Of a stretch of DNA of 64,000 nt, positions 39,544 through 56,178 are shown piece after piece. The number at the start of each line of letters is the position of its first letter. Positions within the stretch are counted from its first letter, which is position 1. A program made the translations under genes and the position numbers. The stretch lies in contig NZ_BNEM01000002.1 of the NCBI RefSeq assembly GCF_018327705.1, positions 1,054,001 to 1,118,000 of the forward strand, in the 5' to 3' direction. Below the pieces are notes generated by a model. It had not been told where the DNA came from. It ran no database searches and was given only the letters and a program-made list of their open reading frames with translations. Source of the DNA: Catellatospora sp. TT07R-123. GTDB taxonomy: Bacteria; Actinomycetota; Actinomycetes; Mycobacteriales; Micromonosporaceae.

Positions 39544-41391
39544 CTACGCGCCGGTCGCCTGCCGCCAACGCAGCGACCGGCCGCCCGCCACCAGCATTCC
39601 GGCGGCGCCGGTCAGTGCGGACACGTCGTCGGCCGGGCCGAGGTCGGTCCACGGTGCCGAGCCGTCGACCGGCAGCCTCGCCAGCAGGCGTTCTTCGGTC
39701 GCGGCGAACAGCAGGCTGCTCAGCCCCGTCAGCGCGACGACCCCGGCCGCGTCGTCGATCCGCTGCCAGGTCCCGGTGCCGTCGGCCAGGGACGCCGCCG
39801 TCCGCGACCACAGCCCGCCCTGCGCGAGCGCGAAGTAGGTCGCGTTCACGCAGGCCAGTGCGGTCGTCCCGGCGACGGCGCCGCCGAGGTCGCGCCACGG
39901 CGCGACCTCGGGCACCGGGTCGCGGTACACGATCCGGTCGTCGGTGGTCACCCCGAGCAACCCCAACGGCATGCCCCGGTACGCCTCCCGCGGCGCCCCC
40001 AGCGCGGCCAGCTCCGGCGCACCGTCCACCGCCCGCCACGACAGGTTCTGCCCGCACAGCTCCCGTACCCGCAGCACGCCGTCCGCGGCCGCGAACAGCT
40101 GCCCCTCGCATGCGGCCAGCACCGCGCCGGGCACCACCGGTCCGATCAGCTCGAACTGCGGCGCACGGGCCTGTGCGAACCGGTCCAGGACGTTGCGGGT
40201 GATCCGGTCCACGACCGGGTCGCCCAGGGCCGCGCCCCAGTTCACGGTCGCGGCGGTGAACACGGTGCCCTGCCCGAGCCGGTGCACGCCCATGGTCGCG
40301 TGCCCGCCCTGGCCGTAGTGGCGCCAGTGCCGCAGGTCGGCGGTGGCCAGGATGACGAACCCGGGCGGCGTCCCGTCCCGGCCCGTCACCCGGGGCACCC
40401 CGTCGACCTCGGTGAAGTCGGCGGCGTCGGTCTCGTACCCGAGGGCGCCCCGGCCGAAGCCGTCGCCGTCGCGCAGCCCGGTGCCCGCGAACACCCAGTG
40501 GTCGGCGAACCGGACCTGATAGGACTCCTCGCGCATCTTCACCATGTGCTCGCCCCAGGTGCCCGCCCCGCGCCGGTAGCTGACGCCGGTCAGCGCGTTC
40601 TCCGGCCGGTCGACGGGGGCGCTGGACCACTCGACGGTGGTCCGCGACGGGTCGGTGCGCGCCACCGGGTCGGCGACGGCGTCGCGGTGGCAGACCATGG
40701 TGCGGCCGCCGTCCTCAAGGCGGATCTGCCACCAGCAGGTGTTGGCGCCGAACACGGCGAGGTTGCCGCCGCCGCGCACGTACGCCTCGACGTGGTCGCG
40801 CATCTCCCACGTCCAGTACTCGTCGTGGCCGTTGACGACCAGCACCCGGTGCCGGGCCGGCAGTCCGGGCCGGTCGTGCAGGTCCAGGTTCGCGCAGTAC
40901 TCGGCGCGCAGGCCGCTGCCGGGCAGCCAGCGCAGCAGCCCGTGCTCCCACTCCTGCGGCGGCGGGCCGCCGCCGGGGCGGTCGAAGCTCACCCGCGCGG
41001 CCCGGGTCGGCTCCTCGGCGTAGTAGAGGCCCTGGCCCGGCTCGCCCGACCGGTTGTACGCCTGCCAGGTCGTGAACGGCACCGACACCAGGATCTCGGC
41101 TTCGCCCCGGCCGCGTACGACGAAGTGGACGTCGGCGTCGGGGCTGTCGGCATCGGCCGACGCCGCGTCGCCGCGGAACGCCGCCCGGTACAGCGAACTC
41201 GGCCAGTCCCCGGGCACGTCCAGGGTCCAGCGCGGGCCATCGACGGTGCCGACGAGCATCACCCGCCCGGTCGGCACGTCCACGACGGTGACGTGTCCGA
41301 GCGGGCGGCCACCCCCGTCGGCCGCGACCGTGAACGCCAGCGTCTCGCCCGGGTCGACGGCGCACGCCCCGGCGTACGCGGTGAGCCTCAC
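39544..41391 (-). CDS. DUF6605 (DMF-amidase-like) protein with beta-propeller-like tail, last gene of NRPS operon
   Basis: Protein of 615 residues. The N-terminal domain (about 1-380) has the N,N-dimethylformamidase large-subunit-like signature: VSVPFTTWQAYNRSGEPGQGLYYAEEPT, RHRVLVVNGHDEYWTWEMRDHVEAYVRGGGNLAVFGANTCWWQIRLED. The C-terminal third (about 390-615) has repeated WRDLGG / TWQRIDDA / WTDLGPA motifs, like a tectonin-type beta-propeller. The GTG at 41389-41391 overlaps the condensation-protein stop (GTGA). Role in the pathway is unknown; amide or formamide hydrolysis of an intermediate is one possibility. Confidence 0.75.
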   Translation of the reverse strand: MRLTAYAGACAVDPGETLAFTVAADGGGRPLGHVTVVDVPTGRVMLVGTVDGPRWTLDVPGDWPSSLYRAAFRGDAASADADSPDADVHFVVRGRGEAEILVSVPFTTWQAYNRSGEPGQGLYYAEEPTRAARVSFDRPGGGPPPQEWEHGLLRWLPGSGLRAEYCANLDLHDRPGLPARHRVLVVNGHDEYWTWEMRDHVEAYVRGGGNLAVFGANTCWWQIRLEDGGRTMVCHRDAVADPVARTDPSRTTVEWSSAPVDRPENALTGVSYRRGAGTWGEHMVKMREESYQVRFADHWVFAGTGLRDGDGFGRGALGYETDAADFTEVDGVPRVTGRDGTPPGFVILATADLRHWRHYGQGGHATMGVHRLGQGTVFTAATVNWGAALGDPVVDRITRNVLDRFAQARAPQFELIGPVVPGAVLAACEGQLFAAADGVLRVRELCGQNLSWRAVDGAPELAALGAPREAYRGMPLGLLGVTTDDRIVYRDPVPEVAPWRDLGGAVAGTTALACVNATYFALAQGGLWSRTAASLADGTGTWQRIDDAAGVVALTGLSSLLFAATEERLLARLPVDGSAPWTDLGPADDVSALTGAAGMLVAGGRSLRWRQATGA

Positions 41392-56100: not shown

Positions 56101-56178
56101 GTCACCCGGGTCGAGCCGGTCCAGGAACCACAGGCGCTGCTGCGCCGCCGTGAGCGGACCGAGTTCGAGTTCGGACAT
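53113..56178 (-). CDS. NRPS module C-A-PCP, first gene of the operon
   Basis: Protein of 1021 residues. Condensation about 5-430 with HHIVGDG (137-143); adenylation about 450-925 (YVLFTSGSTGTPKAV, NTYGPTEATII, YRTGDRVR, NGKVDLRALP); PCP about 935-1010 (FALGGHSLL, S957). The specificity code reads DTEDIGTIIK; acidic Glu and Asp in the pocket suggest a basic side chain such as lysine, beta-lysine or ornithine (inference). It starts with a condensation domain, so it needs an upstream acyl or peptidyl donor. ATG 56176-56178 has GGGAG upstream; a promoter lies 40-70 bp upstream. Confidence 0.92.
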   Translation of the reverse strand: MSELELGPLTAAQQRLWFLDRLDPGDAAYHISTTSRLRGRLDRDLLVRAYDDATRRHESLRTRFGDRDGVPFQQVQPPRPTPVEYADLSAGPDPQAAARARVEELIARPFDLAQGHLIRVGLLRLADDEHVLCTVVHHIVGDGWSMNLLYRQITESYRGVEPAAPAVRYLDHAAARAAGGSGLDFWAGVLADPPTLDLPLDRPRPPVRTSSGGVVLREFPGDTLRAVQAATRQLRCTPYMLLVTLFELALSQLSGQDDLTVGTPVAGRDDTALEAVFGYFSGMLVLRADLSGDVTFRDLVLRTRKSFMEAFAHQDIPFEDLTALLHLPRDLSRNALFQATFTLHTTMNVSATATDGFGGLAAEAFDSGTPHVKTDVAMDVQTGADAMDVVLTYNSDLFDPATAHALADRFTALLEAVLADPDARVRELPLVDDATRAELLRLGAGPELGPDVPLLDRIAAAATATPGAVALDSGGELVSYRQLWDRAGELADALAAAGVAAGSLVGVSVPRGPELVASLLAVWRAGCGYVPIDPQLPVARRDAMAAQAAVAAVLTADGIAPGAAEHASAPDAAYVLFTSGSTGTPKAVLVGRQALADRTAWMAADYGLTAADRVVQFAGIGFDTHAEEIWPTLATGGTLVLLPDGPQSLPELLAADPALTVLDLPTAYWQALLDVVPAWPAALRLVILGGEQVDAAAVAAWRDRHGDRIRLVNTYGPTEATIIATAADLGGDDTLRRPPIGRPLAGVRAHVLDPHGRLVPPGAAGELCLAGAGLADGYLGRPDLTAERFVPDPYGPGLMYRTGDRVRRRRDGMLEFLGRIDRQLKVRGVRIEPGEVEAVLTGHPGVGQAAVTAVGDTLVGYVTGTASSEDVRGYAAERLPALMVPSVVVVLDALPLTRNGKVDLRALPPVTVGDDVRADYVAPRTDAEALVAGIFTELLPVDRVGAHDDFFALGGHSLLATRVIARLRATVELDLPIRALFDRHTVAGFADAVEQALVAEIDRLTEEEAAAQLAAAGQGAP

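What the first reader, a model, noticed from the sequence alone, without database searches (positions are those of the whole stretch)
39544..56178. Seven-gene, fully overlapping NRPS operon with an unassigned product
Every junction overlaps by 1-4 bases (GTGA, GTGA, ATGA, ATGA, TGATG, GTGA), so the whole 16.6 kb is translated as one coupled unit from one promoter. The domain set is C-A-PCP; C-A-PCP-TE-MFS; AMP ligase; C-A-PCP; carrier; stand-alone C; DUF6605. Hand-read codes suggest a basic residue, serine and glycine with an acyl starter. I know of no characterised pathway with exactly this set, though I cannot search.
Basis: partly seen in the sequence, partly recalled or inferred. Interest (0 to 1): 0.75.

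Follow-up and report, generated by a model that had tools for sequence, protein, structure and literature searches.

The report
NRPS operon with thioesterase-exporter fusion
A soil bacterium carries a seven-gene assembly line for a small, still unidentified peptide; the enzyme that releases the peptide looks like the rare kind that closes reactive four-membered rings and is fused to its own export pump, a design repeated in many related bacteria.

Summary
In detail: seven minus-strand genes (56178 to 39544), every junction overlapping by 1 or 4 bases, with the stated domains. The organism is a Catellatospora (Micromonosporaceae). The set is not a one-off: five of ten sampled congeners carry it, and among 78 named actinobacterial loci chosen for a gene 7 relative, 60 hold the four-gene core (AMP ligase, carrier, stand-alone C, DUF6605 protein). 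(1) The release domain of gene 2 has a cysteine nucleophile and the displaced aspartate known from the obafluorin (beta-lactone) and sulfazecin (beta-lactam) thioesterases, and is fused to an MFS exporter in all 39 copies examined (33 distinct). (2) 'DUF6605' is a dimethylformamidase-like amidohydrolase domain with the iron-site His/Glu kept, plus a beta-propeller. Best reading: an acyl-Gly-(basic)-Ser peptide closed to a strained ring, probably a beta-lactone, and exported at once; acyl transfer by ligase/carrier/C and removal by the amidase may be a protection step. Product, ring and amidase substrate are inferred. A serine-type thioesterase control also hits ObiF1 best, so the Cys, not the similarity, points to ring closure.

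The parts
53113..56178 (-). gene 1: NRPS module C-A-PCP, 1021 aa; A code DTEDIGTIIK (basic residue likely)
   Evidence: Pfam; code; conserved in Catellatospora
47570..53116 (-). gene 2: C-A-PCP-TE-MFS fusion, 1848 aa; A code DVWFVSLIDK (Ser-like)
   Evidence: Pfam; code; TE and MFS on one protein in 39 of 39 TE copies (33 distinct loci)
49031..49834 (-). TE domain of gene 2; Cys1179-Asp1297-His1327 (gene 2 numbering) align with the ObiF1 triad
47570..48985 (-). C-terminal MFS exporter part of gene 2 (nearest curated families: H+ antiporter 2A0121, Mef, EntS; all below cut-off)
46041..47573 (-). gene 3: acyl-AMP ligase, 510 aa, no carrier domain
43036..46044 (-). gene 4: C-A-PCP, 1002 aa; A code DILALGVIWK (Gly-like); its C domain is closest to the A-less C-PCP proteins of Streptosporangiaceae loci
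42788..43039 (-). gene 5: stand-alone carrier protein, 83 aa
41388..42788 (-). gene 6: stand-alone C domain, 466 aa, motif CHLATDG (Cys in place of the first His)
39544..41391 (-). gene 7: PF20254 DMFase-like amidohydrolase domain (about 1-410) plus beta-propeller (about 410-615), 615 aa
56179..56381 (-). intergenic region upstream of gene 1; AAGAGTCTTG and other short blocks conserved in six Catellatospora

Best explanation
The operon is a short NRPS line for an N-acylated tripeptide-like product whose release enzyme closes a strained ring. Shown by sequence: ligase, carrier, three C-A-PCP modules, a stand-alone C, a Cys-nucleophile thioesterase fused to an MFS exporter, and an amidohydrolase domain with part of the DMFase iron site. 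Inferred: gene 3 loads an acid X onto carrier gene 5; the C domain of gene 4 joins X to glycine; gene 1 adds a basic residue (the Gly-then-basic order is fused in one protein in relatives); gene 2 adds serine; the Cys-TE takes the chain and lets the serine hydroxyl attack to give a C-terminal beta-lactone, which the fused MFS exports. Gene 6 with gene 5 likely makes a second amide (for example on the side-chain amine), and gene 7 hydrolyses an amide, so that the pair could be a put-on, take-off protecting step. Likelihood of the strained-ring product about 0.45; of gene 7 being an active amide hydrolase about 0.7; of the protecting-group role about 0.25.
For: TE: Cys, Asp and His invariant in 27 of 27 aligned sequences, Cys in 39 of 39 copies, 6 of them second fetches of the same genomes. 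Best solved match ObiF1 (profile E 1.1e-34), then type II TE BorB (1.4e-21), then SulM TE (1.1e-15). The Cys, Asp and His align with ObiF1 Cys1146, Asp1254, His1284, and Ala or Gly stands at the place of ObiF1 Gly1173 (residue numbers from passages of PMC6668435). Model: Foldseek ranks ObiF1 first, SulM chains 2-4; Z 25.2 ObiF1 (3.7 A, 239 residues), 22.9 SulM (3.3 A, 223). TE-MFS fused in 39 of 39. Ser-like code on the TE module. Order Gly then basic: the 10 NRPS16 proteins of the named loci all carry a DILALG-type and then a DTED/DAED-type A domain. Gene 7: Foldseek's first 9 rows are all DMFase or N-acetyl-(R)-beta-phenylalanine acylase, Z 34.7-35.4 over 366-375 residues; H189 and E191 align with DMFase H519 and E521, whose mutants are inactive (passages of PMC7686228). 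Gene 7 relatives also sit in aminosugar-like clusters (4 loci), fitting a small-molecule amidase.
Against: A control TE with a SERINE nucleophile from another actinobacterium (L136) also has ObiF1 as its best solved match, E 3.2e-29, so similarity to ObiF1 does not prove ring closure; RifR, a type II editing TE that shares the Asp position, is within 3 Z of ObiF1, and PMC11298585 (passage) says that ObiF1 and SulM TEs group with type II TEs. The elbow is GHCGVG, one residue longer than the GXCXG of ObiF1. PMC11298585 also names a Cys-TE (AB3403, uncharacterised) with the ordinary Asp. The Ser code has F where known Ser codes have H (recalled). In 23 named loci (22 Streptosporangiaceae, one Streptacidiphilus) the TE-MFS module has another code, DFT-type, not Ser. 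No DMFase small subunit is encoded in the operon, though the DMFase large subunit alone was inactive (passage). The Tyr440 ligand could not be aligned. Nothing is expressed or assayed.
Confidence: 0.45

Rival explanations
1. The TE hydrolyses or macrocyclises/oligomerises the chain, as in DHB-X-Ser siderophores, and the MFS is an EntS-like siderophore exporter; the product is an ordinary acyl peptide or siderophore.
For: Ser-like last module; the MFS part has an EntS match (65.7 bits, cut-off 324) among drug-efflux matches; a basic residue before Ser recalls chrysobactin-type siderophores (recalled).
Against: EntF-type TEs have Ser and position-I Asp (passages); this one has Cys and position-II Asp. 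Gene 3's best NCBIfam matches are fatty/acyl-CoA ligases; no DHB-AMP ligase among the 25 shown of 103. No catechol or siderophore-uptake genes among the seven neighbours scanned; the rest of the genome was not searched for them.
Confidence: 0.3
2. A monobactam-like beta-lactam, with the Cys-TE closing an azetidinone as in SulM.
For: SulM TE is the second structural match; a D-Ala-D-Ala dipeptidase-like gene lies near 38 of 78 related loci and a NagZ-like GH3 gene near 44 of 78 and beside this operon.
Against: The A code is Ser-like; no sulfotransferase among the seven operon genes and seven neighbours scanned; SulM's Gln-Cys-Asn motif is absent (motif from a passage of PMC11298585).
Confidence: 0.1
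3. Genes 3, 5, 6 and 7 are a separate tailoring cassette (acylation and deacylation) that travels with varied synthetases and has no part in starting the peptide.
For: Core of four genes in 60 of 78 named loci with differing NRPS partners; in Kitasatospora indigofera (L109) g7-g6-g3-g5 stand without an NRPS in the stretch held; g6+g7 alone in three Dactylosporangium, in the stretches held.
Against: Loci were cut at 10 kb (or contig ends), so NRPS genes may lie further away; gene 4's C domain still needs an acyl donor.
Confidence: 0.15

Closest known systems
Obafluorin synthetase ObiF1 thioesterase (PDB 6n8e)
   Same: Cys-Asp(position II)-His triad by alignment; closest by profile and by fold; TE in cis after C-A-PCP
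   Different: Elbow GHCGVG instead of GXCXG; fused to an MFS exporter where ObiF has an MbtH-like and an aryl A domain (passage); Ser-like code
Sulfazecin SulM thioesterase (PDB 8w2c, 8w2d)
   Same: Cys nucleophile, position-II Asp, short peptide line
   Different: No sulfotransferase among the genes scanned, no Gln-Cys-Asn motif, Ser-like code
N,N-dimethylformamidase large subunit and N-acetyl-(R)-beta-phenylalanine acylase (6lvb, 8huy)
   Same: Same catalytic fold, Z about 35; His519/Glu521 equivalents kept
   Different: C-terminal beta-propeller, no partner subunit in the operon; found in NRPS or aminosugar-like clusters
Ligase/carrier/free-standing C systems such as OaaC (PMC13142362; only title and start of abstract seen in the listing)
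   Same: A free-standing C domain in an NRPS-like acyl-amide pathway
   Different: Here within an NRPS operon; first His of the C motif is Cys
Second Cys-TE-MFS synthetase in the same genome (L143, G000:C1 about 130-140 kb)
   Same: C-A-PCP-TE-MFS, Cys elbow GHCVG
   Different: No relative of genes 3, 5, 6 or 7 called in the 20 kb fetched; other codes

Membership tests
ObiF1/SulM-type ring-closing thioesterases | cysteine nucleophile | tested here: met
   39 of 39 copies, aligned with ObiF1 Cys1146
ObiF1/SulM-type ring-closing thioesterases | catalytic Asp after beta-7 (position II), none at position I | tested here: met
   By alignment: Asp on ObiF1 Asp1254, Ala/Gly at the Gly1173 place (numbering); no residue distances measured
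ObiF1/SulM-type ring-closing thioesterases | GXCXG elbow of ObiF1 | tested here: not met
   GHCGVG, one residue longer; the genome's second copy has GHCVG
ObiF1/SulM-type ring-closing thioesterases | four-membered ring product | not testable with these tools
   needs assay or LC-MS
Sulfazecin-type monobactam clusters | sulfotransferase (SulN) beside the NRPS | tested here: not met
   none among 7 operon genes and 7 neighbours scanned; whole genome not searched
PF20254 / DMFase-like amidohydrolases | curated Pfam score | tested here: met
   251 bits against 27
PF20254 / DMFase-like amidohydrolases | His519 and Glu521 of the iron site | tested here: met
   H189, E191 aligned, invariant in 38 of 38
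PF20254 / DMFase-like amidohydrolases | Tyr399 and Tyr440 iron ligands | tested here: inconclusive
   Y112 aligned with Tyr399 at low score; Tyr440 not aligned, Y123 is an invariant candidate
PF20254 / DMFase-like amidohydrolases | small subunit needed for activity | not tested
   none in the operon; genome not searched for it
Catechol siderophore NRPS clusters | DHB-type starter genes | tested here: inconclusive
   none among the seven neighbours scanned and no DHB ligase among the 25 families shown for gene 3; rest of genome not searched

The most novel reading that the evidence does not exclude
A widespread actinobacterial family of small acyl peptides with a four-membered-ring warhead, in which ring closure and export are done by one polypeptide (Cys-TE fused to MFS), so that the reactive product is never free in the cell, and in which an iron amidase (gene 7) removes an acyl group put on by the ligase/carrier/C trio; Streptosporangiaceae members extend it with a pyruvate-dehydrogenase-like acyl supply onto an A-less C-PCP.
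Probability: 0.2. Interest if true: 0.82.

Novelty: new variant of a known kind. Interest (0 to 1): 0.6.

Why it matters
If the Cys-TE closes a beta-lactone or related ring, this would be a large, conserved actinobacterial family of warhead peptides, a class with few known NRPS examples. A ring-closing enzyme fused to its exporter would be a clean way to test how producers handle a reactive product. It also gives the poorly known PF20254 family a biosynthetic context in which its substrate can be found.

Tried and rejected
Paper searches (held open-access library only): DUF6605 gave no paper; DMFase with NRPS terms gave general NRPS papers, none of the 20 listed holding 'dimethylformamidase'; six code words gave none; two searches for TE plus MFS in NRPS gave none, though their wording was narrow; obafluorin with genome mining listed 9 papers, of which I read passages of two; Catellatospora with NRPS gave 10 papers, listings only, none about this operon by title. 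A search on amino-group protection by amidohydrolases listed 8 papers, several on macrolactams, none read. The PDB search for the gene 1 A domain listed CmnG and epsilon-poly-lysine synthase, but far below gramicidin synthetase, so it does not settle the residue. The idea that E1/E2 genes replace the glycine A domain in Streptosporangiaceae was dropped: such loci can also carry a Gly-type A domain. The idea that ObiF1 being the best match is itself proof was dropped after the serine-TE control. An iron box or other regulator site was looked for only by eye upstream of gene 1; none obvious. A quick tree of 73 gene 7 rows puts the 4 aminosugar-context rows and the 3 pair-only rows each on one branch and needs 5 changes for the core label, 4 for the rows called alone; rows L088, L104 and L115 were left out as fragments, and three more loci had no gene 7 called.

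Limits: gene calls in loci come from my own codon-bias script, so gene counts are lower bounds (gene 7 itself was called in 75 of 78 loci); loci reach at most 10 kb to each side; gene families were cut at 35% identity and 60% coverage. The labels permease and SBP are my reading by eye, not a scan.
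Full report
Observation. The seven genes are present as described. Coordinates, frames and junctions were recomputed: 56178-53113, 53116-47570, 47573-46041, 46044-43036, 43039-42788, 42788-41388, 41391-39544, all minus strand, overlaps of 4, 4, 4, 4, 1 and 4 bases. Pfam gives C-A-PCP; C-A-PCP-TE-MFS; AMP ligase; C-A-PCP; carrier; C; PF20254. Among the 21 other co-directional neighbour pairs that my gene caller found in the window, 4 overlap, so six in a row is not background. That everything comes from one promoter is an inference: conserved blocks lie upstream of gene 1, but internal promoters were not tested, a co-directional GH3 gene ends 203 bases upstream, and in genome G082 gene 7 is on the other strand.

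Where it is. The window lies in a 9.17 Mb genome with 41 places that match the C-domain family. In a sample of 300 genomes of the same family, the window's own included, gene 7 had a match at E up to 1e-20 in 100, but only 12 besides the own genome had a match of about 50% identity or more over most of the protein. Of those 12, eight carry genes 1-7: five of the ten other same-genus genomes sampled, G044 and G081 with an added 63-65 aa gene that I take for MbtH by its sequence, and G082 with gene 7 reversed. In the 20 kb fetched, three (G106, G095, G122) have only genes 6 and 7 as a pair, and G017 only gene 7.

A cluster family. A scan of named genomes with an alignment of gene 7 gave 78 loci, by title and tree labels mostly Micromonosporaceae, Streptosporangiaceae and Streptomycetaceae, with one Nocardiopsis and one metagenome bin. 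Within 10 kb, gene 6 relatives are called in 65 of 78, gene 3 in 62, gene 5 in 61, all four core genes in 60, and some NRPS in 52. Gene 6 lies directly upstream of gene 7 in 63 of 78, with a 4-base overlap in 45 of those 63. Many Streptosporangiaceae loci add an A-less C-PCP protein (46 of 78 loci), E1-alpha, E1-beta and E2 like genes (24, 23 and 14 of 78; 8 more loci with a short E1-alpha piece), and a D-Ala-D-Ala dipeptidase-like gene (38 of 78) (each family name rests on one scanned member). The C domain of gene 4 is closest to that A-less C-PCP family (39-46% identity in the rows shown).

Building blocks. Profile-mapped codes, with the last position set to K by convention, are DTEDIGTIIK (gene 1), DVWFVSLIDK (gene 2), DILALGVIWK (gene 4). 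Reading them as basic, Ser and Gly rests on recalled code tables. Among named loci, Gly-type codes occur in 29, DTED/DAED-type in 10, and the 31 TE-bearing modules fall into two kinds: 8 Ser-like (three of them cut by the locus edge) and 23 DFT-type, DFT(M/L/I)(I/V)GH(V/I)GK, of which 22 are Streptosporangiaceae and one is Streptacidiphilus. In all 10 NRPS16 proteins a Gly-type module is followed by a DTED/DAED-type module, which suggests the order acyl, Gly, basic, Ser for the window operon.

Release domain. The TE of gene 2 has C1179, D1297 and H1327. An alignment of 27 TEs keeps all three; 39 copies, six of which are second fetches of the same genomes, keep the Cys in 39 of 39. Profile search of solved structures gives ObiF1 first (1.1e-34), then the type II TE BorB, then SulM (1.1e-15); the single sequence gives the same first three. 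The alignment puts C1179, D1297 and H1327 on ObiF1 Cys1146, Asp1254 and His1284, and an Ala or Gly at the place of ObiF1 Gly1173 in the rows displayed (residue numbers from passages of PMC6668435). PMC11298585 (passages) states that among structurally characterised NRPS TEs only ObiF1 and SulM have the Asp in position II, that both have a Cys nucleophile and close four-membered rings, and also that both group with type II TEs. The model (pLDDT 77) matches ObiF1 best by Foldseek and by VIA (Z 25.2, 3.7 A, 239 residues), SulM next (22.9, 3.3 A, 223), RifR 22.4. Against this: a TE with a serine nucleophile from another actinobacterium also matches ObiF1 best, at 3.2e-29, and the elbow here, GHCGVG, has one residue more than ObiF1's GXCXG. 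So ObiF1-like TEs with Ser exist, and ring closure is suggested by the Cys, not by the similarity alone. All 39 TE copies are fused to an MFS domain, whose nearest curated families are H+ antiporter 2A0121 and Mef-type macrolide exporters, all below their cut-offs. The genome has a second NRPS with C-A-PCP-TE-MFS and a GHCVG elbow, so the fusion is not unique to this operon. In a sample of 396 genomes of the phylum, 8, the window's own included, had a match to this TE at E up to 1e-15; of the nine places other than the window's, six have Ser and three Cys at the nucleophile (two in G650, one in the own genome).

Gene 7. PF20254 scores 251 bits (cut-off 27), and the genome has one match to it. 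The model (pLDDT 91) matches N,N-dimethylformamidase and N-acetyl-(R)-beta-phenylalanine acylase over about residues 1-410 (Z 34.7-35.4, 2.6-2.8 A, 366-375 residues), and glutaminyl cyclases, which are beta-propellers, over 410-615 (Z about 18, 2.6-2.7 A, 189-190 residues). H189 and E191 align with DMFase H519 and E521 and are invariant in 38 of 38; mutants of these residues are inactive in DMFase (passages of PMC7686228). Y112 may correspond to Tyr399 (low score); Tyr440 was not placed. Four named loci hold gene 7 relatives beside aminotransferase, radical-SAM/SPASM, GFO/IDH and glycosyltransferase type genes, an aminosugar-like setting. Together these make an amide hydrolase of small molecules the likeliest role.

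Gene 6 has CHLATDG where C domains have HHxxxDG; Cys in first place is seen in 61 of 69 family members, three of which are from the neighbouring cluster L009; in 5 the search pattern found nothing. Its nearest solved relatives are ordinary C domains. With gene 3 and gene 5 it resembles free-standing acyl-transfer trios.

Verdict. The finding is real and its product unassigned as far as could be searched. It is best filed as a new variant of NRPS lines with a cysteine-type, ObiF1/SulM-like release domain, not as a member of either pathway. The ring, the residue assignments and the amidase role are inferences awaiting assays.

Noticed in passing
L009 (G000:C2:1118001-1138000), 3472-17405, just right of the window: A second cluster with three stand-alone C domains related to gene 6 (30-31% identity), a carrier, a KAS III-like protein, an AMP-ligase-like protein, methyltransferases, a glycosyltransferase, E1-alpha/E1-beta like genes and a phosphopantetheinyl transferase-like protein.
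   Followed up: partly
56382-57857 (-), and several kb downstream of gene 7 in many Streptosporangiaceae loci: A GH3 beta-N-acetylhexosaminidase-like gene lies beside the operon here and near the relatives in 44 of 78 named loci, there mostly with a ROK regulator and genes that look like a sugar ABC transporter (the transporter labels are by eye). A functional link or a shared ancestral site: unexplained.
   Followed up: partly
L143 (G000:C1:122000-141999), 7977-18139: Two-gene NRPS with a Cys-TE-MFS fusion and codes DFAGVGATYK, DVLGMAGIIK, DLTCLASVAK.
   Followed up: partly
L106, L107, L110, L113: Gene 7 relatives in a partly conserved aminosugar-like cluster (DegT aminotransferase, radical SAM/SPASM, GFO/IDH, GT2, PhyH, DUF1349).
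   Followed up: partly
L095, L103, L111, L124: DUF6875 protein, FAD monooxygenase and O-methyltransferase genes beside some Nonomuraea/Thermoactinospora relatives, with an MFS protein related to the gene 2 exporter part in three of the four and an NRPS in two.
   Followed up: no
upstream of gene 1, within 56179-56381: AAGAGTCTT, a short perfect palindrome within a block conserved in six Catellatospora.
   Followed up: no
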